DNA of 64,000 nucleotides from Paraburkholderia sp. Tr-20389 (GTDB taxonomy: Bacteria; Pseudomonadota; Gammaproteobacteria; Burkholderiales; Burkholderiaceae), in assembly GCF_017104565.1 (NCBI RefSeq), contig NZ_JAAGPD010000032.1, positions 62,001-126,000 of the forward strand, given 5' to 3'. Within the stretch, counting starts at the first letter, position 1, and every line of letters starts with the position of its first letter. Positions 48,609-64,000 of the stretch are shown in pieces. The notes beneath the pieces were generated by a model. That model searched no databases. It saw only the letters and a list, made by a program, of their open reading frames with translations, and was not told the DNA's origin. The position numbers and the translations under genes are program-made.

Positions 48609-49105
48609 CGTTGGTCCCCTTGCATAGGGTTCGGCATGTTCATTTGCATACCCTGGTCGGACGTCCGGTGAGCAGGAGCGGCAGATCGGGAAGCCGGTTG
48701 TTGCTGGTCCGGAGCGGGGGCGGGTGCCGGCAATGGTTGCCCGAGTGCGACGCGCATGGCGACGATTTCCTGTTGTTGCTCGACGATGATCTCCTGCGCG
48801 ATACGGCGCAACTGTTCGTTGTGTCCGTAACGCAGTTCGGCCTGCGCCATGTCGATGGCACCTTGATGGTGAGGCACCATCATTGCGACGAAATCGCGAT
48901 CGACGTCACCCGTCGGTCTCGTGGACATGCCGTCCATCATTCTCGTCATGGCGGCGTGGTTCTCTGCCAGGAAGGGCGTTTCGCCCGATGCAGCGTCGGT
49001 CTGTAAGCCGGCCGTCAGCGCCGGCGTGTCGCCAAGCGCTGTGATCGCCACGGCAACGATGAGCTTCAGGATCGTCCGCAGGTTACGAGGACTTGGGATG
49101 CGCAC
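48605..49105 (-). CDS. DUF305 (CopM-type) exported protein
   Basis: A 166-residue protein with an N-terminal hydrophobic export segment (residues 11-32) and the DUF305 helical core: MTRMMDGM, DFVAMMVPHHQGAIDMAQAEL, then EIIVEQQQEIVAM. The HHxGAI-M motif with many Met and His residues binds Cu(I)/Ag(I) in the characterised member CopM. The C-terminus is Pro/Ala/Gln- and Met-rich. The GTG start at 49105 has GGGAGAACC ahead. It is the first gene of the pair with the YVTN propeller. A periplasmic copper-handling role is an inference from the family. Confidence 0.88.
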   Translation of the reverse strand: MRIPSPRNLRTILKLIVAVAITALGDTPALTAGLQTDAASGETPFLAENHAAMTRMMDGMSTRPTGDVDRDFVAMMVPHHQGAIDMAQAELRYGHNEQLRRIAQEIIVEQQQEIVAMRVALGQPLPAPAPAPDQQQPASRSAAPAHRTSDQGMQMNMPNPMQGDQR

Positions 49106-51561: not shown

Positions 51562-51807
51562 ATGAACGTCTTCAAGTTGTTAGCGTTGACTTCGATGCTG
51601 GTGTGCGGTGCCGCGAATGCGGGCACGCTTCAGGCAACGGAGCACCCAGCCAGTGTTCCCAGCAACGGTTACGTCGTGCAGTGCGACCCCGTGTCGTTTG
51701 CGACGGGAAGCGCGCAGAATCGCGCGACGTGTCGCCGGGAATTTGCACGCGAGGCGCGTCCGAACGTGCAAACCTCGCCGCTCACGGCATCCGATTACGC
51801 TTCCTGA
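51562..51807 (+). CDS. Small exported protein of unknown function
   Basis: An 81-residue product with a signal peptide (residues 1-20, MNVFKLLALTSMLVCGAANA) and a short polar mature part with two Cys (VVQCDPVSF and NRATCRREF) that may form a disulphide. Small secreted proteins of this general size are common in Burkholderiaceae and mostly uncharacterised. The 3' end overlaps the convergent LacI gene by 13 bp. The frame opens at 51499, but the signal peptide supports the start at 51562. Confidence 0.6.
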   Translation: MNVFKLLALTSMLVCGAANAGTLQATEHPASVPSNGYVVQCDPVSFATGSAQNRATCRREFAREARPNVQTSPLTASDYAS

Positions 51808-52862
51808 TCCGGCGCTGCGCTTTGCGTGCTCGCACGCACGACGAGTTCGAATCCCACATCGACGATGCGCGGTTCGCGCTCGTCCTCGGGTAGTTCCGCG
51901 CGCTCCATCAACTCCTGCGCGATGCGCAGGCCGATCTGGGTCGCGCGCGGCTGAATCGTCGTGAGCGGCGGCACGCATTCCTCGCTGAACGGCAGGTCGC
52001 CGAAACCAGCCACGCGCAAGCGCTGCGGGACGGCAAGCCCGCGCCGCTGCGCTTCGAACAGCACGCCTAGCGCGATCACATCGTTCGAACAGGCAATCGT
52101 ATCGACGTCCGGCATGCGCTGAAGAATGTCGCTCAATGCGTGCGCGCCCGTTTTCGGCGACGCATCGCCCGGCACATCTTCGACGTGCACGTTGAGGCCC
52201 GCCTTCAGCATCGTGCGGCCGAAGCCTTCGCAACGCTGGCGTGCACGCACGTCGCTTGCCATGCGCGCGCCGATGAATGCCACGCGCTGCGCGCCGATTT
52301 CCAGCATGTGCCGCCCGATCGTTTCGCCGGCTTCGTAGTGCGAGAAGCCCACTTGCAGATCGAAAGGCTGTTCGCCGAGTTCCCACATCTCCGCGACGGG
52401 CGCGCGCGCACCGCGCAACAGCGCGCGTGTTTCGTCGTCGTGACGGCAGCCCGTGACGACCAGCGCCGTCGGCGACCACGACAGGAACGTTCGCACAAGG
52501 TCCGCCTCGCGGCCGGGTTCGTATTCGGTTGCGCCGAGCAGCAACTGATAGCCGTGCCGGTCGAACTCTTTCTGCATCGCAGCGACCGTCGCCGAAAAGA
52601 ACGCGTTGCCGAGCGACGGCACGACGACGCCGATGGCTCGCGTGCGCGCGGCGGCCAGGCTGCCCGCCAGCAGATTGGGAACGTAGCCGAGCACGTCGAT
52701 CGCCTGCTTGATGCGCGGCGCGATGCGCGGCGATACGGCCTCGGGGTTGCGCAGAAACAGGGAAACCGAGCTGGCGGACACGCGAGCGCGCGCGGCGACG
52801 TCATCCATCGTCACGCGATTGGTGCTGCGCCGGGAGCGCGGTGCCTTGGCTGTCTGGGACAT
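51795..52862 (-). CDS. LacI-family repressor of the sulfoquinovose cluster
   Basis: A 355-residue LacI/GalR regulator. The helix-turn-helix is VTMDDVAARARVSASSVSLF (residues 17-36) with hinge YVPNLLAGSLAAART; the effector domain follows (IGVVVPSLGNAFFS, FSHYEAGETIGRHMLEIGA). It is divergent from the sulfogluconolactonase gene. Perfect palindromes with the AGCGCT core, typical of this family's operators, occur once in this gap (52993-53006) and once ahead of the downstream transporter operon (55488-55501), so it very probably represses both units. The inducer would be sulfoquinovose or an intermediate; this is inferred from context. Confidence 0.88.
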   Translation of the reverse strand: MSQTAKAPRSRRSTNRVTMDDVAARARVSASSVSLFLRNPEAVSPRIAPRIKQAIDVLGYVPNLLAGSLAAARTRAIGVVVPSLGNAFFSATVAAMQKEFDRHGYQLLLGATEYEPGREADLVRTFLSWSPTALVVTGCRHDDETRALLRGARAPVAEMWELGEQPFDLQVGFSHYEAGETIGRHMLEIGAQRVAFIGARMASDVRARQRCEGFGRTMLKAGLNVHVEDVPGDASPKTGAHALSDILQRMPDVDTIACSNDVIALGVLFEAQRRGLAVPQRLRVAGFGDLPFSEECVPPLTTIQPRATQIGLRIAQELMERAELPEDEREPRIVDVGFELVVRASTQSAAPDQEA

Positions 52863-52976
52863 GGGCTGCGAGCGGTCGGAAGGGCAAGCGCCACGGTCGG
52901 CGCGGAGCCTGTATTGTAATTGCCGCAGCGCAACGAGTCATCTTCTCCGCACTAACCCTGGTATCGCGTAGGGAAA

Positions 52977-52990
52977 TCGTAGCGCTATTA
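52977..52990. promoter_or_regulatory. Degenerate auxiliary operator
   Basis: TCGTAGCGCTATTA keeps the AGCGCT centre and part of the arms of the main palindrome, and is centred 16 bp upstream of it. It may be a weak second binding site in the LacI/lactonase gap. Confidence 0.35.
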
Positions 52991-52992
52991 TT

Positions 52993-53006
52993 TCGCAGCG
53001 CTGCGA
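52993..53006. promoter_or_regulatory. LacI operator, perfect palindrome, copy 1
   Basis: TCGCAGCGCTGCGA, a fully symmetric 14-mer 34 bp before the lactonase start. The same 14 bases stand ahead of the SSS transporter gene at 55488-55501. Confidence 0.8.
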
Positions 53007-53040
53007 TTTTAGCGTTGCGGCCTGAACAACCGAACCCGAC

Positions 53041-53937
53041 ATGCCCTCTTTCGATCTTCGTTGCGTCCTCGACGCCCAAGCCCAACTCGGTGAATGTCCT
53101 CGCTGGGACGAGCGCGAGCGCGTGCTGTACTGGGTCGACATTCTCGAACCGGCACTGCATCGCTTCGATCCCGCGACGGGCATCGACCGGACGTTCGCGC
53201 TGCCGGAGCACATTGGCTGCTTCGCGCTGCGCGAAGGCGGCGGCTTCATCGCGGGTCTGCGCTCGGGCATCTGGACGCTCGACGAACAGGCGCGTCCCGT
53301 GCGGCAACTCGCTGCCAATCCGGAAGACGTGTACACGAGCCGCTTCAACGACGGCCGCTGCGACGCGGCGGGCCGTTTTTTCGCGGGCACGATCGACGAG
53401 CCGAAGGCCGGCGGCAACGCGCATCTGTATCGCCTGGCGGACGGCAAGCTCGATGCGCTGAGCGCGGGCTTGCTGACATCGAACGGACTCGCGTTCAGCC
53501 CGGATAACCGCTGGCTCTATCACTCCGACACACCCAACTTCACGATCTACCGCCGCGCGTTCGATCTGGCGACGGGCGCATGCGGCGAGGCGGAAGTGTG
53601 GGCACGCATTCAGCCGACCGCCGACGATCGCGGCCGCCCGGACGGCGCCGCCGTCGATGCCGAGGGCTACTACTGGAGCGCGTTTTACGAAGGCGGGCGC
53701 GTGGTCCGCTTCGCGCCGGACGGAACGGTCGATGCGGTGCATCCCGTGCCCGTGCGCTGCCCGACCATGTGCGCGTTCGGCGGCGACGATCTGCGTACGT
53801 TGTACATCACGACGGCGCGCGCGGGGCGCAGCGCCGACGAACTCGAACGCGAGCCGCTGGCGGGCGGCCTCTTCGCGATGCGCACTGACGTGCCGGGCCT
53901 GCCCGAGCCGCGCTGGCGCGAAAACACAGTCGCATAA
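53041..53937 (+). CDS. SMP-30/gluconolactonase-family sulfogluconolactonase
   Basis: A 298-residue six-bladed SMP-30 lactonase. Metal ligands are visible as E18 (LGECPRW), N103 (SRFNDGRCD), N148 (TSNGLAFSPD) and D201 (GRPDGAAVD). In this cluster the expected reaction is opening of 6-deoxy-6-sulfogluconolactone, made by the SQ dehydrogenase, to 6-deoxy-6-sulfogluconate. No signal peptide, so it is cytoplasmic, as the pathway needs. It is the first gene of the two-gene unit with the aldehyde dehydrogenase and lies right behind the LacI operator. Sugar-lactone chemistry is sure; the sulfo-substrate is inferred from the operon. Confidence 0.85.
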   Translation: MPSFDLRCVLDAQAQLGECPRWDERERVLYWVDILEPALHRFDPATGIDRTFALPEHIGCFALREGGGFIAGLRSGIWTLDEQARPVRQLAANPEDVYTSRFNDGRCDAAGRFFAGTIDEPKAGGNAHLYRLADGKLDALSAGLLTSNGLAFSPDNRWLYHSDTPNFTIYRRAFDLATGACGEAEVWARIQPTADDRGRPDGAAVDAEGYYWSAFYEGGRVVRFAPDGTVDAVHPVPVRCPTMCAFGGDDLRTLYITTARAGRSADELEREPLAGGLFAMRTDVPGLPEPRWRENTVA

Positions 53938-53968
53938 GCGCATGAACTTACTCTCGACGGACCCTGAC

Positions 53969-55435
53969 ATGCCTGATCTGAAAGACTCCACTCTGTTGCG
54001 CACGCAATGCCTGATCGGCGGCGAATGGCGCGCCGCGCACGACGGCCGCACCTTCGACGTCACCGATCCCGCGACGGGCGCGCTGATCGCCAGCGTGCCG
54101 TCGATGACGGCGGTCGAAACGCGCGAGGCGATCGCAGCGGCCGAAGCGGCGCTGCCCGCGTGGCGTGCGCTGACGGCCAAGGCGCGGGCCACGCTGCTGC
54201 GCAAATGGCACGACCTGATGCTCGAACATCAGGACGATCTCGCGTTGCTGATGACGGCCGAACAGGGCAAACCGCTCGCCGAAGCGAAGGGCGAGATCGG
54301 GTTTGCCGCGAGCTTTATCGAATGGTTCGCGGAAGAGGCGCGCCGCGTCGACGGCGATGTGATCGCGACGCCCGCGAACGACCGGCGTCTGGTCACGATC
54401 CGCCAGCCCGTCGGTGTGTGCGCGGCGATCACGCCGTGGAATTTTCCGGCCGCGATGATCACGCGCAAGGCCGGTCCGGCGCTCGCGGCGGGCTGCACGA
54501 TGGTGCTGAAGCCCGCCTCGCAGACGCCGTTTTCGGCGCTCGCCCTCGCGGCGCTGGCCGAGCGCGCGGGCATTCCGGCCGGCGTGCTCAACGTCGTGAC
54601 GGGCGATCCGCAGCCCATCGCCGAAGAACTCACGGGTAATCCCGTCGTGCGCAAGCTGTCGTTCACGGGCTCGACGGGCATCGGCGCGAAGCTCATGGAG
54701 CAGGGCGCGCGGCATATCCAGAAGCTGTCGCTGGAACTGGGCGGCAATGCGCCGTTCATCGTGTTCGACGATGCCGACATCGACGCCGCGATCGAAGGCG
54801 CGCTGATCTCGAAGTACCGCAACGCGGGTCAAACCTGCGTGTGCGCGAACCGCTTCTTCGTGCAGGCAGGTGTCTACGAAGCGTTCGTCGACAAGCTCGC
54901 GACGCGCGTGCAGGCGCTGCGCTGCGGTGACGGACGCGAGCCGTCGACGCAGATCGGTCCGCTGATCGACGCGCGCGCACTGTCCAAGGTGAACGAACTC
55001 GTCGCGGACGCCCGCGCGCAAGGCGCGAACGTGCTGTGCGGCGGCGAACCGCTCGCGCTCGCTGGAGACGGCACGGCGCGCCACTATGCGCCGACCGTGC
55101 TGACGAACGTCACGCCGTCGATGCGCGTCGCACGCGAAGAAATCTTCGGCCCGGTTGCGCCCGTCATGCGCTTCACCGACGAGCAGGACGTGATCGCGCT
55201 CGCCAACGATACCGAGTTCGGTCTCGCCAGCTACTTCTACACGCGCGACATGGCACGCGTCTGGCGTGTCGCGGAAGCGCTGGAGTTCGGTATGGTCGGC
55301 ATCAACACGGGGCTGATCTCGACAGCGGAAGCGCCGTTCGGCGGCGTCAAGCAGTCGGGCCTCGGTCGCGAAGGTTCAAAATACGGTATCGACGAATACC
55401 TGGAAATAAAGTACCTGTGCATGCAGGTGGCCTGA
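53969..55435 (+). CDS. NAD(P)-dependent sulfolactaldehyde dehydrogenase (GabD-like ALDH)
   Basis: A 488-residue aldehyde dehydrogenase. The catalytic Cys is C290 in NAGQTCVCANR and the general base is E256 in LSLELGGNAP; PWNFPAAMITRK and GSTGIG are cofactor motifs. By sequence it is close to succinate-semialdehyde dehydrogenases, as is the sulfolactaldehyde (SLA) dehydrogenase of Pseudomonas putida SQ1, which converts SLA to sulfolactate in the last sulfo-ED step. I take the ATG at 53969 (MPDLKDSTLLRTQC), which matches where GabD proteins begin; an ATG at 53942 is in frame. It follows the lactonase by 31 bp. Confidence 0.87.
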   Translation: MPDLKDSTLLRTQCLIGGEWRAAHDGRTFDVTDPATGALIASVPSMTAVETREAIAAAEAALPAWRALTAKARATLLRKWHDLMLEHQDDLALLMTAEQGKPLAEAKGEIGFAASFIEWFAEEARRVDGDVIATPANDRRLVTIRQPVGVCAAITPWNFPAAMITRKAGPALAAGCTMVLKPASQTPFSALALAALAERAGIPAGVLNVVTGDPQPIAEELTGNPVVRKLSFTGSTGIGAKLMEQGARHIQKLSLELGGNAPFIVFDDADIDAAIEGALISKYRNAGQTCVCANRFFVQAGVYEAFVDKLATRVQALRCGDGREPSTQIGPLIDARALSKVNELVADARAQGANVLCGGEPLALAGDGTARHYAPTVLTNVTPSMRVAREEIFGPVAPVMRFTDEQDVIALANDTEFGLASYFYTRDMARVWRVAEALEFGMVGINTGLISTAEAPFGGVKQSGLGREGSKYGIDEYLEIKYLCMQVA

Positions 55436-55487
55436 TCGCGCGGCGGTTTTCGTAAGACACCGGGCGGATTTAAGGCTCGCGCAGAAA

Positions 55488-55501
55488 TCGCAGCGCTGCG
55501 A
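55488..55501. promoter_or_regulatory. LacI operator, perfect palindrome, copy 2
   Basis: TCGCAGCGCTGCGA, identical to 52993-53006, 71 bp before the SSS symporter start and in the gap after the aldehyde dehydrogenase. It marks a second promoter of the same regulon, starting the transporter/glycosidase/core-pathway operon. Confidence 0.8.
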
Positions 55502-55571
55502 AAATACTGCCCGGTTGTCGGACGCATCGCCCACACGAGCACGAAGACAACCTCAAAGGGATGAGGAGACA

Positions 55572-57320
55572 ATGATTTTCACCATACTGAGTTTTGCGTT
55601 TTTCACCGCGCTGGTCGGCTTCGTGTCGTACCTGTTCACGCGGCGCGCGAAGGATCACGGCGCGCGCGGCTACTTCATGGCGAGCGGCGGACTCACGGGC
55701 TGGTTCATCGCCGGCTCGATGATGCTGACCAATCTTTCCGCTGAGCAGATGGTGGGTCTGAACGGCGACGCGTACGCGCACAACCTCTCGGCGATGGCGT
55801 GGGAATGCACGGCCGCCATCGCGACCGTCGCGCTCGCGATGTTCTTTCTGCCGCGTTACCTTCGCGGCGGCTTTTCGACCTTGCCGCAATTCCTCGAAGA
55901 ACGTTTCGACTCGACGACGCGTCGCGTGGTCAGCGCGTTCTTCGTGATCGGCTACATGCTGGTCGCGAATCCGTCGGGCCTGTATCTTGGCGCGATCACG
56001 TTCAATCAGGTGTTCGGCGTGCAGGCACTGCTCGGCACGTCGTACGCGAGCACGATCACGATTCTCGTGTGGATGTCGGGGATCATCGGCGCGCTGTATG
56101 CGATCTTCGGCGGACTGCGCGCGGTGGCCGTGTCCGACACGATCAACGGCATCGGTCTGCTGGTCGCCGGCTTGATGGTGCCCGTGCTCGGGCTGTTCGC
56201 GCTCGGTCACGGCGATTTCCTCGCCGGCGTGCACACCATTGCGACGCAGGCGCCCGAAAAGCTCTCCGCGATCGGCGGCCCGCACGATTCCGTTCCGTTC
56301 GGCACGCTGTTCACCGGGATGATCTTCGCGAACCTGTTCTACTGGTGTACGAACCAGGCGATCGTGCAGCGCACGTTCGCAGCGAAGAGCCTTGCCGAAG
56401 GCCAGAAGGGCGTACTGCTGTCGGGCCTGATGAAGCTGCTCGTGCCGCTGATCATGATGTTGCCGGGCGTGGTCGCGTTTCATCTGTATGCGGCGCATCC
56501 GCTCGGCCGCCCGGACCTCGCGTATCCGCAACTCGTGACGGATGTGTTGCCGTGGTGGGCGAAGGGCTTCTTCATCGCAGTGCTGTTCGGCACGGTGATG
56601 AGCCACTTCAATGCCGTGATCAACAGCACGGCGACGCTGATCGCATTCGACTTCTATCGCGTGTGGAAGCCCGAGGCGAGCGATGAAAAACTGATCCGTG
56701 TCGGCAAGACGGCCAGCGTGGTGATCGCCGTCGTGTCGCTGCTCGTCGCGCCGCTGCTGATGTACGCGCCGGATGGCATCTACACGGTGATGCGCCGCTT
56801 CACCGGCTTCTACAACATTCCGATCATCGCAGTCGTGCTGGTGGGTTTCTTCAGCAAGAAGATCGGCGCGTTCCCCGCGAAGATGGTGTTGCTGCTACAT
56901 GTGATCGTCTACACGCTCGGCATTCTCGTGTTCCAGGTCGACAAGATGCTCGGCATCAACTTCATTCACATCATGGGCATCCTGTTCGTGTGCGAAGTCG
57001 CGCTGATGCTGGTGCTCGGTGCGCGCCATCAACGCGCAAAGGCATACGAGCCGCAGTCTCGGCAAACGGGCGATCTCACGCCGTGGCGTCATGCCAGCAC
57101 GATGAGCGTGTTCCTGATCGCGATGCTCGTGAGCATCTACCTGACGCTGTCGCCGATCGGCGTGGCCCGGCATGGCGGCGTGACGACGCAATACGAAGTG
57201 CTGATGGTGGTGACGTGGTGCGTGGCGATCGGACTGATTGCGCTGTTCCGCCGCCGTGCGTCGGCAAGTGGACGCTCGCTCGCATGGAACCAGTCGCCGA
57301 GCGAATCGAACGGACACTGA
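55572..57320 (+). CDS. SSS-family sodium/solute symporter, candidate sulfoquinovose importer
   Basis: A 582-residue sodium:solute symporter with about 14 hydrophobic segments, of the SglT/YidK sugar branch. The N-terminus has FMASGGLTGWFIAGSMMLTN and NLSAEQMVGLNGDAYAH, the sodium-site helix region of vSGLT-like proteins; FYWCTNQAIVQRTFAAKS is another SglT mark. The ATG at 55572 has GATGAGGAGACA ahead. It opens the main operon right after the second operator and before the sulfoquinovosidase, so uptake of SQ or its glycerol glycoside is the obvious role. Described SQ importers are of other families (YihO MFS/GPH type, ABC), so this is an alternative. Confidence 0.87.
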   Translation: MIFTILSFAFFTALVGFVSYLFTRRAKDHGARGYFMASGGLTGWFIAGSMMLTNLSAEQMVGLNGDAYAHNLSAMAWECTAAIATVALAMFFLPRYLRGGFSTLPQFLEERFDSTTRRVVSAFFVIGYMLVANPSGLYLGAITFNQVFGVQALLGTSYASTITILVWMSGIIGALYAIFGGLRAVAVSDTINGIGLLVAGLMVPVLGLFALGHGDFLAGVHTIATQAPEKLSAIGGPHDSVPFGTLFTGMIFANLFYWCTNQAIVQRTFAAKSLAEGQKGVLLSGLMKLLVPLIMMLPGVVAFHLYAAHPLGRPDLAYPQLVTDVLPWWAKGFFIAVLFGTVMSHFNAVINSTATLIAFDFYRVWKPEASDEKLIRVGKTASVVIAVVSLLVAPLLMYAPDGIYTVMRRFTGFYNIPIIAVVLVGFFSKKIGAFPAKMVLLLHVIVYTLGILVFQVDKMLGINFIHIMGILFVCEVALMLVLGARHQRAKAYEPQSRQTGDLTPWRHASTMSVFLIAMLVSIYLTLSPIGVARHGGVTTQYEVLMVVTWCVAIGLIALFRRRASASGRSLAWNQSPSESNGH

Positions 57321-57360
57321 ACCAAACGTATCAACCCAACGCAATAGCAAGGTAAAGCTG

Positions 57361-59391
57361 ATGAACTGGCAGACAGAAGCGGGCGGCAAGCTCGTGCTGC
57401 GCGTGGCAGGCCGCACGCTCTTCGAACATGCACCGGAAGCGCCCGCTGTGTTCGTGGGGCATGGCGTCGAAACGATCGACATGTATCGCGGCAATTTCGA
57501 CATCAGCGATTACGTCGAAGAGCGCGTCGCGCTGCGCGATGCACGTCTCACGCAGCAACAGGACGGCAGCGCGCGCATCGAACTGGCGCGCGACGCGCAA
57601 GCCGCTGCCGAACTGACGATCGTCGCCAGCGAATCGGCACATGGCGTGCAACTGTCGTTGTCTGCCTCGGGCAGCGAGATCAACCGTGTGTGGTGGCGCG
57701 TGCCCGCGCAGCGCGACGAACACGTGTGGGGCTGCGGCGAGCAGATGTCGTATTTCGATCTGCGTGGCCGGAGCTATCCGCTGTGGACGTCGGAGCCCGG
57801 CGTGGGCCGCGACAAGAGCACGCATCTGACGTGGCAGGCCGACACGACATCGAAGTCGGGCGGCGACTACTACAACACCAACTATCCGCAACCGACCTTC
57901 GTGTCGTCGCAGAAGTACTGCCTGCACGCTGAAACGACGGCCTATGCGGACTTCGATTTCCGTCACGACGAGCGGCACGAACTGCAATTCTGGGCAGTTC
58001 CCGAGAAGCTCGAATTCATCTTCGCCGACGACTTCGTCACGCTCGTCGAGCGCATTTCGCAACGCTTCGGCCGTCAGCCCGCGCTGCCCGCATGGGTGAT
58101 GGACGGCGCGATCCTCGGCCTGAAGAACGGCCGTGATCACGCGCAGAAGATCATGGAGCAGAGCCGTGCAGCAGGCCTGAAAGTGAGCGGCCTGTGGTGC
58201 GAAGACTGGGTCGGCATCCGGCAGACCTCGTTCGGCAAGCGTCTCTTCTGGGACTGGCGCTGGAACGAAACGCGCTATCCCGGTCACGCCGAATGGGTGA
58301 AGCAACTCAACGCCGAAGGCGTGCGCTTTCTCGGCTACGTGAATCCGTATCTGTGCAACGACGGCACGCTGTACGTCGAAGCAAAGCAGGCCGGCTATCT
58401 GGCGACGCGCGCGGACGGCAGCGACTATCTCGTCGATTTCGGCGAGTTCGATTGCGGCGTGGTGGACTTCACGAATCCAGCGGCGGCAAGCTGGTTCGAA
58501 CAGCGCGTGATTCGCGACGAGATGCTGAACAAGGGCCTCGACGGCTGGATGGCGGACTTCGGCGAATACCTGCCGACGGACCTGACGCTCGCCAACGGCG
58601 TCGACGCAAAGCTGATGCACAACGCGTGGCCGACGCTGTGGGCGCAGGTCAACGCGCGCGCCATCGAAGGCGCGGGACGCACGGGCGACGCCGTGTTCTT
58701 CATGCGCGCGGGCTACACCGGCGTGCAGGCGCATTGCCCATTGCTGTGGGCGGGCGACCAGTCCGTCGACTTCACGCGTCACGACGGCTTGCAGACGGTG
58801 ATCTGCGGCGCGTTGTCGTCGGGGCTGCTGGGCAACGCGTATCACCATAGCGATATCGGCGGATACACGAGCCTGTTCGGCAATACGCGTACGCCCGAGC
58901 TGTTCCAGCGCTGGGCCGAAATGGCCGCTTTCACGCCGATGATGCGCACGCACGAAGGCAATCGTCCCGACGAGAACTTCCAGTTCTGGCAGGACGCCGG
59001 CGTGCTCGCGCACTTCGCGCGCATGACGCGCGTGTTCGTGGCGCTCAAGCCGTACGTGCAAGGCCTCGCCGATGAAGCGGCGGCGCGCGGTCTGCCGTTG
59101 CAGCGTCCGCTCTTCCTGCATTACGAGCACGATCGCTCGACGTACGCGATCCAGGACCACTATCTGTATGGCCGCGATCTGCTCGTCGCGCCCGTGCACG
59201 CGGCGGGCGCGACGCAATGGCGCGTGTATCTGCCGCAAGGCGATGCATGGACGCATCTATGGAGCGGCACGCGATACGAAGGCGGTCAGCATGTGGACGT
59301 GGCCGCACCGCTCGGCGAGCCGCCCGTGTTCGTGCGCCAGGGCGCGGCGCGCGAAGCGCAACTGCTCGATCTCGCGAAGGACGCAGCGTGA
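57361..59391 (+). CDS. yihQ: GH31 sulfoquinovosidase (YihQ type)
   Basis: A 676-residue GH31 enzyme. It aligns closely with E. coli YihQ over the catalytic region: nucleophile D399 (GWMADFGEYLPTD) and acid/base D466 (LWAGDQSVDF). The sulfonate-binding set is complete in its KERWY form: K255 (LGLKNGRD), E281 (WCEDWVGIR), R294 and W297 (GKRLFW) and Y502 (SDIGGYTSLF). The E. coli enzyme has Q/Q in the first two places. It releases SQ from SQ-glycerol and related glycosides of plant sulfolipid. No signal peptide, so it acts in the cytosol after uptake by the preceding symporter. The start ATG at 57361 has AAGGTAAAGCTG ahead. Confidence 0.93.
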   Translation: MNWQTEAGGKLVLRVAGRTLFEHAPEAPAVFVGHGVETIDMYRGNFDISDYVEERVALRDARLTQQQDGSARIELARDAQAAAELTIVASESAHGVQLSLSASGSEINRVWWRVPAQRDEHVWGCGEQMSYFDLRGRSYPLWTSEPGVGRDKSTHLTWQADTTSKSGGDYYNTNYPQPTFVSSQKYCLHAETTAYADFDFRHDERHELQFWAVPEKLEFIFADDFVTLVERISQRFGRQPALPAWVMDGAILGLKNGRDHAQKIMEQSRAAGLKVSGLWCEDWVGIRQTSFGKRLFWDWRWNETRYPGHAEWVKQLNAEGVRFLGYVNPYLCNDGTLYVEAKQAGYLATRADGSDYLVDFGEFDCGVVDFTNPAAASWFEQRVIRDEMLNKGLDGWMADFGEYLPTDLTLANGVDAKLMHNAWPTLWAQVNARAIEGAGRTGDAVFFMRAGYTGVQAHCPLLWAGDQSVDFTRHDGLQTVICGALSSGLLGNAYHHSDIGGYTSLFGNTRTPELFQRWAEMAAFTPMMRTHEGNRPDENFQFWQDAGVLAHFARMTRVFVALKPYVQGLADEAAARGLPLQRPLFLHYEHDRSTYAIQDHYLYGRDLLVAPVHAAGATQWRVYLPQGDAWTHLWSGTRYEGGQHVDVAAPLGEPPVFVRQGAAREAQLLDLAKDAA

Positions 59392-60209
59392 GCACGACGC
59401 CGTTCCTGCACCATCTGCTGTTCGCGGTGTGCGTCGCGACGGCGACGTTCACGCAAAGCCTGACGGGCTTTGCGTTCGGACTCGTGCTGCTCGGCCTCGT
59501 CGCGGTGTTTCATCTCGCGCCGCTGCCTGTTGCGGCGAACGTGGTCACGGTGATGGTGCTCGCCAATGCCGCATTGCTCGTGCGCGGCGTGCCGAACTTG
59601 CCGCGCCGTTTGCTGGCGCCGTCGTATGGCAGCAGTCTGGTCGGCGTCGCGATCGGCGCCTGTCTGCTCGCGTGGCTTTCCGATAATGCGATCGGCGTCG
59701 TGCGTTTTGCACTCGGACTCGCGATTCTCGCGTGCAGCCTGTTGCTCGTCGTGCAGACGAAGCCGCGTGCGCAGCTCGCATCGCCGGGGACGTTCGCGTT
59801 CTATGGCTGTATTTCCGGCGTGATGGGCGGCGTATTCGCGAGCGCCGGTCCGCCGATGGTGTTCCATCTTTACCGCCAGCCGCTCGATCGCGTGGTCGTG
59901 CGCGACACGCTGGTGCTGCTGTTCGCAGTCAATGCGGTTTTGCGGCTCGTCATCGTGCTTGCGCAAGGACGTTTCGATGCGGCATCGCTGGCGCTGAGCG
60001 CCGAAGCGTTGCCCGTCGTGCTGACCGTCACGTGGCTCGCGCGCCGCTATCCGCCCAACTGGTCGCCTACCGCCGTGCGGCGCGTCGTCTTCGTGCTGCT
60101 GGCGATTGCCGGTGCAAGTCTCGTGGCGCCCGCCGTCACGGGCGCGACGGCTCAGGCACACGCGAAGGTCAGCGCGGCATCTCATCAACCTGGTACTTTG
60201 ACGGCGTGA
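59388..60209 (+). CDS. TauE/SafE-family anion exporter, candidate sulfolactate exporter
   Basis: A 273-residue membrane protein of eight hydrophobic segments in two repeats (TQSLTGFAFGLVLLGLVAVF and GCISGVMGGVFASAGPPMVF are the paired motifs). TauE/SafE proteins export sulfonates such as sulfolactate and sulfoacetate. It starts with GTG overlapping the sulfoquinovosidase stop (GTGA) and ends overlapping the dehydratase start in the same way, so its synthesis is coupled to both. In the sulfo-ED pathway the C3-sulfonate is not broken down and must leave the cell, which fits. Confidence 0.85.
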   Translation: MSTTPFLHHLLFAVCVATATFTQSLTGFAFGLVLLGLVAVFHLAPLPVAANVVTVMVLANAALLVRGVPNLPRRLLAPSYGSSLVGVAIGACLLAWLSDNAIGVVRFALGLAILACSLLLVVQTKPRAQLASPGTFAFYGCISGVMGGVFASAGPPMVFHLYRQPLDRVVVRDTLVLLFAVNAVLRLVIVLAQGRFDAASLALSAEALPVVLTVTWLARRYPPNWSPTAVRRVVFVLLAIAGASLVAPAVTGATAQAHAKVSAASHQPGTLTA

Positions 60210-61957
60210 ATATCGTGCAACAAAAGCTCAAACAACTCAGCGAACTGCGCAGCCAGCGTTGGCTCGCCCCCGATGACATGCGCTCGTTCGCGCATCGTCA
60301 ACGTCTGCAGCAAATGGGTTTGCGCCGCGAAGAATTCATGTCGCGGCCGGTGATCGGCATCATCAATACATGGAGCGACCTGTCGCCGTGCCACGCGCAT
60401 CTGCGCGAGCGCGCCGAAGCGGTGAAGCGCGGCATCCTGCAGGCGGGCGGCATGCCGTTCGAATTGCCCGCGATGTCGCTCGGCGAAGTGATGGTCAAGC
60501 CGACCACGATGATTTACCGCAACTTCCTCGCGATGGAAACGGAAGAGCTGCTGCGCTCGCTGCCCATCGACGGCGCGGTGCTGATGGGCGGCTGCGACAA
60601 GACCACGCCCGGCCTGCTGATGGGCGCGCTGTCGGCGGATCTGCCGTGCATCTTCGTGCCCGCCGGGCCGATGCTCAACGATCGTCATCGCGGCCAGGCC
60701 GTCGGCGCGGGCACGCATACGAAGAAGTTCTGGGACGAGTACGTGGCGGGCAACATCGAGCAGCCCGAGTGGATCTCGCTCGAAGCGCGCATGACGCGCG
60801 CGCCCGGCACCTGCAACACGATGGGCACGGCGAGCACGATGACGTCGATCGTCGAGGCGATGGGCTTCACGCTGCCCGGCGCGACCAGCATTCCTGCAAT
60901 GGACTCGTCGCATACGCGCATGTGTTCGACGAGCGGCGAACGCATCGTCGGCATGGTGTGGGAAGACCTGAAGCCGAGCCGCTTCTTCAACCGTGCATCC
61001 GTCGAAAACGGCATCGTCACGTATATGGCGCTGGGCGGCTCGACCAACGCCGCGATTCATACGATTGCGATTGCGGGCCGCGGCAACGTGCCGTTGACGC
61101 TCGACGACATCGCGCGCGTCGGCAAGAACATTCCCGTGCTCGCCGATGTGTTCCCGTCAGGCAAGCGCCTGATGGAAGACTTCTACTACGCGGGCGGCTT
61201 GCCTGCATTGCTGAGCGGCGTGAAGGAATTCCTGTCGCTCGACTGCGTGACCGTGACGGGCACGACGCTCGGCGAAAACATCGCCCGCTTCGAGGCGGGT
61301 CGGCGTCCGCAGGGAGAAGACGCGATCCGTCCATTGACCGATCCCGTCAGCGAACGCGGCGCGCTCGGCGTGCTGCGCGGCAATCTCGCACCCAATGGCG
61401 CCGTCATCAAGCCGAGCGCGGCAAGCCCGCATCTGATGAAGCATCGCGGACGCGCGCTCGTGTTCGATTCGATTGCCGAGATGAACGCGAAGATTCACGC
61501 GCCCGAGCTCGACGTCGATGCCGACACCGTGCTCGTGTTGCGCGGCGGCGGCCCGATCGGCGCGCCGGGCATGCCCGAGTGGGGCAATCTGCCGATTCCG
61601 AAGAAGCTGCTGGCTGCGGGCGTGCGCGACATGGTGCGTATCTCCGATGCACGCATGAGCGGTACACACTACGGCACCTGCGTGCTGCACGTTTCGCCGG
61701 AGTCGGCGGCGGGCGGACCGCTCGCACTGATCCGCACGGGCGACATGATCGAACTCGACGTGGAAGCGGGCCGCATCGACGTGCTGCTCTCCGACGACGA
61801 ACTCGCACGCCGCCGCGAAGACTGGCGCGCGCCGCCGAATCCGCGCAAGCGCGGCTATATCCGTCTCTATGTCGAACAGGTTTCGCAAGCGGACAAGGGT
61901 TGCGACTTCGACTTCCTGACGGGCTTCGAAGAACCCGTCGAACCGTCGATCTTCTGA
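60206..61957 (+). CDS. IlvD/Edd-family 6-deoxy-6-sulfogluconate dehydratase
   Basis: A 583-residue iron-sulfur dehydratase. The three cluster cysteines are C62 (LSPCHAHLRER), C130 (GGCDKTTPG) and C203 (APGTCNTMG); MDSSHTRMCS and the C-terminal DARMSGTHYGTCVLH are further family blocks. It belongs to the sugar-acid (arabonate/xylonate-type) branch rather than the branched-chain-amino-acid one. The expected reaction is dehydration of 6-deoxy-6-sulfogluconate to 2-keto-3,6-dideoxy-6-sulfogluconate (KDSG). The GTG start at 60206 overlaps the exporter stop; a second GTG at 60215 is possible. Confidence 0.88.
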   Translation: MNIVQQKLKQLSELRSQRWLAPDDMRSFAHRQRLQQMGLRREEFMSRPVIGIINTWSDLSPCHAHLRERAEAVKRGILQAGGMPFELPAMSLGEVMVKPTTMIYRNFLAMETEELLRSLPIDGAVLMGGCDKTTPGLLMGALSADLPCIFVPAGPMLNDRHRGQAVGAGTHTKKFWDEYVAGNIEQPEWISLEARMTRAPGTCNTMGTASTMTSIVEAMGFTLPGATSIPAMDSSHTRMCSTSGERIVGMVWEDLKPSRFFNRASVENGIVTYMALGGSTNAAIHTIAIAGRGNVPLTLDDIARVGKNIPVLADVFPSGKRLMEDFYYAGGLPALLSGVKEFLSLDCVTVTGTTLGENIARFEAGRRPQGEDAIRPLTDPVSERGALGVLRGNLAPNGAVIKPSAASPHLMKHRGRALVFDSIAEMNAKIHAPELDVDADTVLVLRGGGPIGAPGMPEWGNLPIPKKLLAAGVRDMVRISDARMSGTHYGTCVLHVSPESAAGGPLALIRTGDMIELDVEAGRIDVLLSDDELARRREDWRAPPNPRKRGYIRLYVEQVSQADKGCDFDFLTGFEEPVEPSIF

Positions 61958-61974
61958 ACACAGGAACTATCGAA

Positions 61975-62808
61975 ATGGCCAACAGAATCAAGCAGGATCC
62001 CACGCGCAATGCTTTTCGCGACGCGCTGAAGCACAAGGACGGCAGCACGATGCGCGCGAAGCCGCTCGGCACCTGGCTGATGTCCGGTTCGCCCGCGACG
62101 GCCGAAGCCTTCGGCCATGCAGGATTCGACTGGCTGCTGATCGACATGGAGCACGCACCGCTCGAATTCACCGATGTGCTGCACATGCTGCAAGCCGTCG
62201 ACTGCGGCGGCGCTGCGCCCATCGTGCGCATCGCGCGCAATGATCCGACGCTCGCCAAGCGCGCGCTCGACATGGGTGCGCCGACGCTAATGTTCCCGTA
62301 TGTGCAGAGCCCGGAAGAAGCGCGCGCAGCCGTTGCGTCGACGAAGTTTCCGCCGCTCGGCACGCGCGGTTTCGCAGCGATGCACCGCGCGAGCCGCTAT
62401 GGCACGTGGAGCGAGTTCGGCGCGCGCGCGAACGAGGCGACCGCCTGCATCGTGCAGCTGGAAACGCCTGAGGCCGTCGCACAGCTCGAAGCGATCGCAG
62501 CCGTGCCTGGCGTCGATGCGCTGTTCGTCGGGCCGGGCGATCTGTCGGCGGCGATGGGCAAGATCGGCAATCTCGCCGACGCGGAAGTGCGTGGCGTACT
62601 CGCCGACTGCGCGCGTCGCGCGAACGCGATCGGCATGCCGATCGGCATCGTCGGACCGACGCCCGCAATGGTGCGCGAGTTCGTCGAAATGGGCTATGAC
62701 TATGTGGCGATTGCGTCCGACATGGGCATGGCGATGCGCCAGGCGAACGCGTTCATCGCGGAACACGACCAGGTGAAGGCCAACGCGAACGCAGGCGGGC
62801 CGTACTGA
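61975..62808 (+). CDS. HpcH/HpaI-family class II aldolase (KDSG aldolase)
   Basis: A 277-residue HpcH/HpaI aldolase. H60 in LIDMEHAPLE is the catalytic His, E163 (VQLETPEAV) and D189 (GPGDLSAAMG) bind the metal, and R85 in VRIARND faces the keto acid. In the sulfo-ED route it splits KDSG into pyruvate and 3-sulfolactaldehyde, supplying the only carbon the cell keeps. The ATG at 61975 has CAGGAACTATC ahead and lies 17 bp after the dehydratase stop. The next gene begins 2 bp after its stop. Confidence 0.88.
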   Translation: MANRIKQDPTRNAFRDALKHKDGSTMRAKPLGTWLMSGSPATAEAFGHAGFDWLLIDMEHAPLEFTDVLHMLQAVDCGGAAPIVRIARNDPTLAKRALDMGAPTLMFPYVQSPEEARAAVASTKFPPLGTRGFAAMHRASRYGTWSEFGARANEATACIVQLETPEAVAQLEAIAAVPGVDALFVGPGDLSAAMGKIGNLADAEVRGVLADCARRANAIGMPIGIVGPTPAMVREFVEMGYDYVAIASDMGMAMRQANAFIAEHDQVKANANAGGPY

Positions 62809-62810
62809 TC

Positions 62811-63704
62811 ATGTCGAGCGCACGGGAACTGTTCGCGCTGCACGACGACGCCTGGCAGGTGCGCGTCGCGCCGTCGCTGGGCGGCGCGATTGTCGATGCG
62901 CGCTGGCACGGCCGCGACGTTTTGCGGCCGATGCCTGCGGTCGAACTCGAAGCGGGCAACGTGCGCAAGACGGCGTGCTATCCGCTGGTGCCGTTTTCGA
63001 ATCGCATCGCGTTCGGCACGTTCAGCTTCGGCGATTCGCGCTACACGCTCGCGAAGAACCTCGCGGGCATCTCGCACGCGATTCATGGCGTCGGATTTCA
63101 GCGCGCATGGACAGTGCAATCGAACGATGCGAGTGCCGTCGACATGTGGCTCGCGCATACGCCGGACGATCACTGGCCGTTCGCGTTCGAAGCGCAGCAG
63201 CGCATTGCGATTGAAGGCGATACGTTGACGCTCGGCATGCGCGTCATGAATACGGACACGCGTGCCACGCCATGCGGTGCGGGCTGGCATCCATTCTTTC
63301 CGCTCGATACGGCAGCGGGAACGACGCATTTGCATACCGCATGGACATCGATGCTGGTCAGCGACGCAAACGATCTGCCGTGCTCGAGTTCGCAGCCGCC
63401 GCAGTTCGGCGCACTGGACGACACCGTCGTCGATAACTGCTTTACCGGCTGGAGCGGCAGCGCGCGCATCGACACGCCGCATCATCGCATCGCGATCGAA
63501 GCGAACGATGCGCTGCGTTGTGCCGTGTTTTTCAGGCCCTCGGGCCAGCCGTTTTTCGCATTCGAGCCGGTGAGCCATGCAAACGATGCGCTCAACGGCA
63601 ATGAGCCGCCGATGCATGTGCTCGCGCCAGGCGAGACGCTCGAAGCGCGCGTCGACATCTCGATGCAGACGCTGACTACGGAATCAAACAGGAGAGCAGG
63701 ATGA
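62811..63704 (+). CDS. Aldose 1-epimerase family sulfoquinovose mutarotase
   Basis: A 297-residue galactose-mutarotase-like beta-sandwich. The substrate loop has PLVPFSNRIAFGTF and SHAIHGVGFQRAW (catalytic His), and CGAGWHPFFPL has the second His. The YihR-type mutarotase of SQ operons converts the alpha-anomer of SQ released by the glycosidase to the beta-anomer used by the dehydrogenase. The ATG at 62811 is 2 bp after the aldolase stop. Its stop overlaps the following SDR start (ATGA), so it is coupled to it. Confidence 0.87.
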   Translation: MSSARELFALHDDAWQVRVAPSLGGAIVDARWHGRDVLRPMPAVELEAGNVRKTACYPLVPFSNRIAFGTFSFGDSRYTLAKNLAGISHAIHGVGFQRAWTVQSNDASAVDMWLAHTPDDHWPFAFEAQQRIAIEGDTLTLGMRVMNTDTRATPCGAGWHPFFPLDTAAGTTHLHTAWTSMLVSDANDLPCSSSQPPQFGALDDTVVDNCFTGWSGSARIDTPHHRIAIEANDALRCAVFFRPSGQPFFAFEPVSHANDALNGNEPPMHVLAPGETLEARVDISMQTLTTESNRRAG

Positions 63705-64000
63705 ATTCAACCCGTCCGTTGTATCCGGCGCTCGCCGGGCAAGTGGCGTTCGTATCGGGCGGCGCATCGGGCATCGGCGAAGCGATTGTCGAAGCCTTTT
63801 GGGAGCAGGGCGCGCAAGTCGCGTTTTGCGATCTGGACGAGCAGGCGGGCAACGCGTTGTGCGAGCGGCTTGGCGTCTCGCGTGACGACGCATCGGCGGT
63901 CACGCGTCTGCGGCCCTGGTTCGCACGCTGCGACGTGCGCGATATCGACGCCTATCGCAACGTGCTCGATGAGGCCGCGCGTGCGCTCGGCCCCATTCGC
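63701..64000 (+). CDS. SDR-family NAD-dependent sulfoquinovose dehydrogenase (partial)
   Basis: The first 100 codons of a short-chain dehydrogenase, cut by the right edge. The NAD-binding motif is VSGGASGIGEAIV, followed by the acidic FCDLDEQ that favours NAD and CDVRDIDAY. The catalytic Ser-Tyr-Lys lies outside the window. The start ATG at 63701 has CAGGAGAGCAGG ahead and overlaps the mutarotase stop. It fits the first oxidative step of sulfo-ED: SQ to 6-deoxy-6-sulfogluconolactone, the substrate of the lactonase at 53041. The family is certain, the substrate inferred from the operon. Confidence 0.83.
   Translation, partial: MNSTRPLYPALAGQVAFVSGGASGIGEAIVEAFWEQGAQVAFCDLDEQAGNALCERLGVSRDDASAVTRLRPWFARCDVRDIDAYRNVLDEAARALGPIR

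What the first reader, a model, noticed from the sequence alone, without database searches (positions are those of the whole stretch)
51795..64000. Nearly complete sulfoquinovose Entner-Doudoroff (sulfo-ED) locus in a Burkholderiaceae-like genome
Every step is encoded side by side: import (SSS), glycoside cleavage (GH31 sulfoquinovosidase), mutarotase, SDR dehydrogenase, SMP-30 lactonase, IlvD/Edd dehydratase, HpcH aldolase, SLA dehydrogenase and TauE exporter, with a LacI regulator. The set of families matches the sulfo-ED pathway described for Pseudomonas putida SQ1 and rhizobia. Overlapping or near-touching genes from the SQase to the SDR show one co-translated operon. Turnover of plant sulfolipid would link this bacterium to leaf or root material.
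Basis: partly seen in the sequence, partly recalled or inferred. Interest (0 to 1): 0.9.

Follow-up and report, generated by a model that had tools for sequence, protein, structure and literature searches.

The report
Plant-sulfolipid sugar operon with two glycosidases
This Paraburkholderia-like genome carries a complete gene set for eating sulfoquinovose, the sugar of plant sulfolipid, and just past the edge of the window the same cluster holds a second, mechanistically unrelated enzyme predicted to free that sugar, which is unusual.

Summary
The finding is real. All ten reported genes are present, and the SDR cut off by the window end is complete in the genome. The set matches the sulfo-ED pathway. 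GH31 is 63% identical to a solved sulfoquinovosidase (5ohy), and the SDR is closest to P. putida SQ dehydrogenase, with the nine tested published residues kept. The dehydratase is PF00920, as in the SQ route; the sulfofucose route uses another family. Two identical LacI-type operator sites are the only exact ones in the 9.0 Mb genome.

A porin and a GH188 (NAD+-dependent sulfoquinovosidase) homologue follow. GH188 keeps 8 of 8 published residues, groups with two characterised enzymes and is under purifying selection. GH188 and GH31 were reported as complementary. Here nine of 145 genus genomes carry both in one locus (one GH188 copy split), as do a Burkholderia multivorans conjugative plasmid and some Shinella. 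Of 33 sampled GH188-bearing genomes outside the genus, none had GH31.

Genomes with both are already in print (rumen, 2026), so this is a new variant of a known pathway. No activity was measured; the SLA-dehydrogenase, importer and exporter roles rest on family and position.

The parts
51795..52862 (-). LacI-family regulator, divergent from the operon
   Evidence: Pfam PF00356/PF00532/PF13377; present in 13 of 14 GH31-bearing genus loci (absent in L122/G008)
52980..53008 (.). Operator region upstream of the lactonase gene: TAGCGCTA (52980-52987) and the palindrome CGCAGCGCTGCG (52994-53005)
   Evidence: Exact pattern match 52991-53008 (-); core AGCGCTATTATTTCGCAGCGCTG in 13 of 13 loci compared; one of only two exact sites in 9.0 Mb
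53041..53937 (+). SMP-30 family, predicted sulfogluconolactone lactonase
   Evidence: PF08450 E=5.8e-82; best solved match 7plb Smp-30/Cgr1 family protein
53969..55435 (+). Aldehyde dehydrogenase, predicted sulfolactaldehyde dehydrogenase (start could be 53942)
   Evidence: PF00171; aligned to RlGabD 8c54 and EcGabD 3jz4; function by position only
55486..55503 (+). Second operator, AATCGCAGCGCTGCGAAA, upstream of the SSS gene
   Evidence: two matches in the window; 0 of 100 shuffles gave two; AATCGYAGCGCTGCGAAA in 13 of 13 loci compared
55572..57320 (+). Sodium:solute symporter, predicted importer of SQ or SQ-glycosides
   Evidence: PF00474; NF007790 over its cut-off; homologue of 51-96% identity directly before GH31 in 7 of 80 loci, some of the 80 being cut short
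57361..59391 (+). GH31 sulfoquinovosidase
   Evidence: Best solved matches 5ohy/5ohs (yihQ type), 8r56, 6pnr and 5aed Sulfoquinovosidase; 63.1% identical to 5ohy; both catalytic Asp and the K-E-R-W-Y set as in 5ohy
59388..60209 (+). TauE/SafE permease, predicted sulfolactate exporter
   Evidence: PF01925 E=9.7e-16; overlaps both neighbours by 4 bases
60206..61957 (+). IlvD/Edd dehydratase, predicted sulfogluconate dehydratase (GTG start)
   Evidence: PF00920 + PF24877; 62-67% identical to the IlvD homologue of loci outside Burkholderiaceae that show one
61975..62808 (+). HpcH/HpaI aldolase, predicted KDSG aldolase
   Evidence: PF03328; best solved match 1dxe
62811..63704 (+). Aldose 1-epimerase, predicted SQ mutarotase
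   Evidence: PF01263; best solved match 3nre, 92 bits; weakest conservation in the cluster, dN/dS 0.24
63701..64000 (+). SDR, predicted SQ 1-dehydrogenase; continues to L004:14511. Beyond the window follow a porin (L004:14581-15693) and a GH188 homologue (L004:15742-16854); window position = L004 position + 49999
   Evidence: Best solved match 9gwu SQ 1-dehydrogenase, nine tested residues kept; GH188:

Best explanation
This is a LacI-controlled sulfo-ED operon for glycosides of sulfoquinovose, extended by a second sulfoquinovosidase. A porin lets SQ-glycerol or SQ through the outer membrane and the SSS protein imports it with sodium. Two enzymes of unrelated mechanism, probably both cytoplasmic, release SQ: GH31 by double displacement on alpha-glycosides, and GH188 by NAD+-dependent oxidation at C3, elimination, hydration and reduction. 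SQ is then mutarotated, oxidised by the SDR to the lactone, opened by the SMP-30 lactonase, dehydrated by IlvD/Edd and cleaved by the HpcH aldolase to pyruvate and sulfolactaldehyde. The ALDH oxidises the latter to sulfolactate, which TauE exports. Shown here: gene content, order, operator-like sites, residue conservation, purifying selection. Inferred: every activity, the transport roles, location, induction by SQ.
For: GH31 and SDR closest to solved SQ enzymes. GH31 carries the residue set of 5ohy. SDR keeps D99, R101, N119, S147, R152, R154, Y160, K164 and Q198 of PpSQDH (alignment, residue list from passages of PMC12133307, mapped by hand). PF00920 dehydratase. GH188 E=6e-135 to FlSqgA 8qc2, 8 of 8 residues, 97/95 support for the fork holding it with 8qc2/8qc3. 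Same order GH31 to GH188 in nine genus loci. dN/dS 0.085 for GH188 and 0.095 for GH31. Two exact operator sites in the genome, both here. The B. multivorans plasmid locus adds glycerol kinase and glycerol-3-phosphate dehydrogenase genes, fitting SQ-glycerol as substrate, and carries TAGCGCTA before its lactonase, IlvD and porin genes. A porin gene (ompL) also belongs to the E. coli SQ cassette and rises on SQ (PMC12608037, passages).
Against: No activity, expression or growth data. The ALDH is no closer to known SLADHs than to SSADH, and the Arg pair proposed for sulfonate binding is also in EcGabD. NCBIfam scores the dehydratase exactly at the cut-off of L-arabinonate dehydratase and has no model over its cut-off for GH188 (best: inositol 2-dehydrogenase, 131 of 355 bits). 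A terminator-like hairpin lies between porin and GH188, so GH188 may be weakly transcribed or separately controlled, and no operator was seen before porin or GH188 here. One of the nine GH188 copies is split. The SDR's C-terminal tail differs from PpSQDH, whose last residue Gln260 is a second-shell contact; that one was not tested.
Confidence: 0.88

Rival explanations
1. The GH188 homologue is not a working sulfoquinovosidase here: it is a redundant or decaying passenger, or acts as a dehydrogenase on SQ or another sulfosugar.
For: GH31 already supplies the activity; one genus member has the gene split and another keeps only a C-terminal piece without GH31; 5 of 14 GH31-bearing genus genomes lack it; a terminator-like hairpin precedes it.
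Against: Eight intact copies under purifying selection; 8 of 8 residues and placement with the two characterised enzymes; GH188 beside sulfo-ED genes and GH31 also in Shinella and on the B. multivorans plasmid.
Confidence: 0.12
2. A non-phosphorylative pathway for an ordinary sugar acid (L-arabinose or similar): SDR, SMP-30, IlvD/Edd, HpcH and ALDH are the same families.
For: NCBIfam places the dehydratase at the L-arabinonate dehydratase cut-off (882 of 882 bits) and the ALDH over the SSADH subfamily cut-off; solved dehydratase relatives include L-arabinonate dehydratase.
Against: Two sulfoquinovosidase-type enzymes, an SDR with the sulfonate Arg of PpSQDH, and a TauE gene in the same cluster.
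Confidence: 0.03
3. The locus degrades sulfofucose, not sulfoquinovose.
For: Same families for dehydrogenase, lactonase and aldolase in Paracoccus wurundjeri (PMC12421959, sections read in part).
Against: That pathway uses a PF13378/PF02746 dehydratase and ABC import and had no sulfofucosidase candidate; this locus has PF00920 and a GH31 SQase. SQases from E. coli and A. tumefaciens were inactive on a sulfofucoside (PMC12421959).
Confidence: 0.03

Closest known systems
[quoted passage not shown]
   Same: SDR dehydrogenase, lactonase, PF00920 dehydratase, PF03328 aldolase, ALDH and a mutarotase; predicted end product sulfolactate (PMC12133307, PMC10599462, PMC12890257, PMC9594981, all seen in part). 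GH31 and TauE in those two clusters are recalled.
   Different: SSS importer where the Shinella-type loci seen here have ABC genes, a porin, and a GH188 gene
GH188 NAD+-dependent sulfoquinovosidases FlSqgA/ArSqgA (8qc2, 8qc3; PMC10755693)
   Same: Sequence over nearly the whole length and the eight SQ-contact or catalytic residues tested
   Different: Published GH188 clusters were said to lack a GH31 SQase; here both lie in one cluster
Neosphaerochaeta fermentans, a rumen genome with both YihQ and SqgA (PMC13219744, passages)
   Same: Two sulfoquinovosidases of different families in one organism
   Different: Sulfo-transketolase pathway there, sulfo-ED here
Burkholderia multivorans P2Bm2011a conjugative plasmid locus (NZ_CP048444.1)
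   Same: Lactonase-ALDH-SSS-GH31-TauE and IlvD-HpcH-mutarotase-SDR-porin-GH188 in the same direction; 10 of 12 proteins 63-80% identical
   Different: Adds glpK, a glycerol-3-phosphate dehydrogenase, an ABC importer and a DeoR regulator; LacI only 35% and mutarotase 41% identical
E. coli yih cassette (sulfo-EMP, PMC12608037, passages)
   Same: Porin, importer, GH31 SQase, mutarotase and regulator together
   Different: Isomerase, kinase and aldolase route; product DHPS

Membership tests
Sulfo-ED pathway | SQ 1-dehydrogenase of the SDR family with the PpSQDH residues | tested here: met
   Best solved match 9gwu; nine residues checked, nine kept; C-terminal Gln260 not tested
Sulfo-ED pathway | SMP-30 lactonase, PF00920 dehydratase and PF03328 aldolase together | tested here: met
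Sulfo-ED pathway | Sulfolactaldehyde dehydrogenase (or reductase) | tested here: inconclusive
   PF00171 ALDH in the operon; not separable from SSADH by residues or tree
Sulfo-ED pathway | Growth on SQ with sulfolactate excreted | not testable with these tools
   No experiment possible
GH31 sulfoquinovosidase | Nucleophile, acid/base and sulfonate-pocket residues | tested here: met
   Asp405 named in a passage of PMC11968277, the other residue names recalled
GH188 NAD+-dependent sulfoquinovosidase | K107, Y136, R166, L170, K172, E189, H193, H321 (ArSqgA numbering) | tested here: met
   8 of 8; residue list from PMC10755693. Glu163, also named there, did not fit the numbering and was not scored
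GH188 NAD+-dependent sulfoquinovosidase | NAD+-dependent cleavage of SQ-glycosides | not testable with these tools
   No assay possible
Sulfofucolytic ED pathway | Dehydratase of PF13378/PF02746 | tested here: not met
   Dehydratase is PF00920; definition from PMC12421959

The most novel reading that the evidence does not exclude
A lineage of Paraburkholderia, and at a different place in the cluster Shinella, keeps both known sulfoquinovosidase mechanisms in one sulfo-ED locus because they do different work: GH31 takes the alpha-linked sulfolipid headgroup, GH188 takes beta-linked or otherwise GH31-resistant sulfoquinovosides. The combined module can also move between Burkholderiaceae on conjugative plasmids.
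Probability: 0.3. Interest if true: 0.55.

Novelty: new variant of a known kind. Interest (0 to 1): 0.4.

Why it matters
Sulfoquinovose is made on a scale of billions of tonnes a year, and its degraders are often recognised in genomes by their sulfoquinovosidase. GH31 and GH188 were described as complementary. A locus that keeps both under purifying selection gives a direct genetic test (single and double deletions in one strain) of whether the second mechanism opens substrates closed to the first. It also documents the trait as patchy in Paraburkholderia (GH31 SQase in 14 of 145 genomes) and present on a B. multivorans conjugative plasmid.

Tried and rejected
Sulfofucose pathway: rejected on dehydratase family. 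L-arabinose-type pathway: considered because of NCBIfam and solved-structure names, rejected on the two SQase-type enzymes and the SDR. In-genome cleavage of sulfolactate: two PF04295 genes found; the split one (C44) lies beside an amidohydrolase and an aldo-keto reductase and is 31% identical to the SuyB-like protein of L172, so not taken as SuyB; the other (C19) was not examined. SLADH by phylogeny did not work: the cluster ALDHs need four label changes on the tree. The first count of dual loci with 10 kb flanks missed the Shinella cases; genome-wide searches corrected it. The GH188 sister group inside the characterised clade is not resolved (91/62 and 80/52), so whether Paraburkholderia and Shinella gained it separately is open. 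In the two Shinella copies the L170 position reads K in the alignment (7 of 8); the published contact there is the backbone amide. Pocket residue names for GH31 could not be looked up because that paper is not held. The listing held one relevant paper (PMC12608037), opened: a porin in an SQ cassette is not new. One search listed one paper (PMC8249747), not opened. A published stable-isotope study (PMC13372026, passages) labelled one Burkholderiaceae sequence variant but found no standard SQ cluster in its relatives, and found Vibrio sulfo-ED ending in DHPS, not sulfolactate. The G008 locus was left out of the operator comparison because its neighbourhood differs (13 of 14 GH31-bearing genus loci used).
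Full report
OBSERVATION. From GH31 to SDR the genes overlap by 4 bases or stand 2 to 17 bases apart. The window ends inside the SDR; it lies at 62001-126000 of contig C26 of a 9.0 Mb, 129-contig genome, and the stretch L004 gives the whole SDR (269 aa). Two further genes follow on the same strand: a porin (PF13609; signal sequence by eye; L004:14581-15693) and a Gfo/Idh/MocA-type protein (L004:15742-16854). The next gene is convergent. The genus is taken as Paraburkholderia because two of its members, G097 and G083, have contigs of the same length as Paraburkholderia sp. C35 and P. sejongensis with the same identities.

WHAT THE ENZYMES ARE. The GH31 protein matches six solved chains at 772-965 bits (5ohy/5ohs named yihQ, 8r56, 6pnr, 5aed/5aee YihQ), and then drops to 149 bits. 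It is 63.1% identical to 5ohy (the Agrobacterium enzyme, recalled) and 51.7% to 5aed, over the aligned segments. It carries K-E-R-W-Y where YihQ has Q-Q-R-W-Y, as 5ohy does, plus both catalytic aspartates (apart from Asp405, named in a passage of PMC11968277, the residue names are recalled). The SDR's best solved match is P. putida SQ 1-dehydrogenase 9gwu (258 bits, next 215). In that alignment the nine residues checked from PMC12133307 (part 1 and passages) are kept: D99, R101, N119, S147, R152, R154, Y160, K164, Q198. They were mapped by hand with an offset of 13; one search repeats five of them and the D-x-R motif. The C-terminal tail differs. The dehydratase is PF00920. The sulfofucose route, otherwise of the same families, uses PF13378/PF02746 (PMC12421959, results and discussion read in part).

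The aldehyde dehydrogenase is the weak link. Its best solved match is E. coli SSADH, with RlGabD fourth; the Arg pair proposed for SLA (PMC10599462, passages) is also in EcGabD. The genome has 28 further ALDHs at E<=1e-80, the closest 66% identical. On a tree of 30 proteins the ALDHs of these clusters do not form one clade. Its role is therefore read from position. The SSS protein has a homologue of 51-96% identity directly before GH31 in 7 of 80 fetched loci (L005, L006, L009, L010, L011, L081, L084; some of the 80 are cut short). Three of these, in an Opitutaceae and two Bacillaceae, show no other gene of the cluster apart from ALDH matches of 36-37% in the latter two. That favours import of SQ or its glycosides.

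THE PART BEYOND THE WINDOW. The Gfo/Idh/MocA protein matches FlSqgA (8qc2, 453 bits), ArSqgA (8qc3, 449) and 8zn9 (359), then drops to 82 bits. FlSqgA and ArSqgA are the NAD+-dependent sulfoquinovosidases of GH188 (PMC10755693, three of four parts read). The eight residues scored from that paper are all present, and on a tree of 44 proteins the genus sequences are one clade (100/100) inside a supported fork (97/95) with the two characterised enzymes and three f206 sequences. These residues are present in every row of that alignment, so they show family membership, not something special to this gene.

CO-OCCURRENCE. PMC10755693 states that GH188 clusters lack a GH31 SQase and that the two are complementary. 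Here: (a) Genus, 145 genomes: GH31 SQase in 14, GH188 in 10, both in 9, in the same order about 8 kb apart; one of the nine has GH188 split in two pieces; the tenth GH188 genome (G076) has only a C-terminal piece in a longer frame. (b) Family, 398 genomes of 25 genera drawn evenly: GH188 in 4, all in this genus; the B. multivorans plasmid below shows that this sample misses cases. (c) Class, 369 genomes: GH188 in 8, 7 outside the genus; phylum, 398 genomes: 27, 26 outside. None of these 33 has a GH31 SQase at E<=1e-100, nor does G076 (0 of 34; the same query found 14, though itself holds no positive). Two of the 33 (G649, G976) are distant, 34-38% identical, and two (G836, G1090) have a stop inside. 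(d) The 80 genomes that hold the closest GH31 SQases: GH188 in 3, namely Paraburkholderia sp. C35 (the locus of G097, already in (a)) and two Shinella, where it lies on the same contig about 10 kb from GH31, beyond the regulator. Those 80 are the best of at least 594 candidates, so this is a sample. (e) Plasmid records: GH188 in 22, GH31 SQase in 35, both in 5: P. caribensis, B. multivorans and three Shinella. In two Shinella and in B. multivorans the annotation shows one cluster; for the other two the coordinates are within about 13 kb.

Co-occurrence as such is in print: PMC13219744 (passages) reports two of 5578 rumen genomes with both, and a species with the sulfo-transketolase pathway and both enzymes. 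I found no report of both in a sulfo-ED locus in the searches, which cover open-licence PMC papers only. Most listed papers were not opened, those opened were read in part, supplements could not be read, and one GH188 paper was not held.

IS GH188 KEPT BY SELECTION? Among eight intact genus copies the median dN/dS is 0.085, against 0.095 for GH31, 0.063 for IlvD and 0.240 for the mutarotase in ten loci (the split copy was left out). It is maintained like the rest of the cluster.

REGULATION. The sequence AATCGCAGCGCTGCGAAA occurs at 52991-53008 (-) and 55486-55503 (+) and nowhere else exactly in the genome (two more places with two mismatches; the reversed control pattern gave one). In 100 shuffles of the window none had two matches. 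Upstream of the lactonase gene the core AGCGCTATTATTTCGCAGCGCTG, and upstream of SSS the second site, are kept in 13 of 13 genus loci compared. A LacI protein acting on this one locus is the simplest reading. No such site precedes porin or GH188 here. A hairpin followed by T lies between them (L004:15701-15718). Its six-pair stem is kept in the 5 loci folded of 9, with one pair broken in one, and without compensating changes; at least L115 has too short a gap for it. Terminator-like sites in the region are no more frequent than in shuffles (13 against a mean of 11.0), and promoter-like ones fewer (1 against 2.4). In the B. multivorans plasmid locus TAGCGCTA precedes the lactonase, IlvD and porin genes, which suggests the same kind of control over porin and GH188 there.

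MECHANISM. Inferred path: porin and SSS take up SQ-glycerol or SQ; GH31 (alpha) and GH188 (alpha and beta, according to PMC10755693) release SQ; then mutarotation, oxidation, lactone opening, dehydration, aldol cleavage, oxidation of sulfolactaldehyde and export of sulfolactate. The glycerol kinase and glycerol-3-phosphate dehydrogenase genes inside the B. multivorans cluster fit SQ-glycerol as the natural substrate. A porin gene also sits in the E. coli SQ cassette (PMC12608037, passages).

VERDICT. What is added is the second sulfoquinovosidase, the porin, the operator pair and the distribution. New variant of a known kind.

Noticed in passing
L119, L120, L121 (L121 = Paraburkholderia sejongensis, L006): Three genus members have the sulfo-ED cluster without a close ALDH homologue (at most 32% in the stretch) and without GH188; sulfolactaldehyde must be handled by a gene elsewhere or reduced.
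   Followed up: no
L172:3843-10819; L173 shows at least IlvD-SDR-GH188: A family f206 genome carries SuyB-like, 2-hydroxyacid dehydrogenase (SlcC-like), Ldh_2 (ComC-like; best NCBIfam model L-sulfolactate dehydrogenase, below cut-off), IlvD, SDR and GH188 in a row: a candidate cluster for complete mineralisation of SQ. No homologue of this window's GH31, SMP-30 lactonase or HpcH aldolase was seen in the stretch.
   Followed up: partly
NZ_CP048444.1:32589-55815 (L188): Burkholderia multivorans conjugative plasmid with a sulfo-ED locus, both SQases, glpK and glycerol-3-phosphate dehydrogenase, with transposase genes on both sides.
   Followed up: partly
L114 (G021) and NZ_CP013104.1:1264231-1265339: GH188 reads as two pieces in G021 and in the P. 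caribensis record; described only.
   Followed up: no
L123:7401-8549 (G076): A C-terminal GH188 piece inside a longer frame in a genome without GH31 SQase, looking like a remnant of a lost locus.
   Followed up: partly
L010 (uncultured Opitutaceae), L018 (uncultured Opitutae): GH31 SQase (70-71% identical) without the sulfo-ED enzymes beside it, apart from a 44% ALDH match in L018; an SSS homologue lies next to it in L010. The SQ route there is unknown.
   Followed up: no
window 47130-49105 (-): A beta-propeller-like secreted protein and a DUF305-like small protein in tandem upstream of the finding, named by eye from the reading frames; no family search was made.
   Followed up: no
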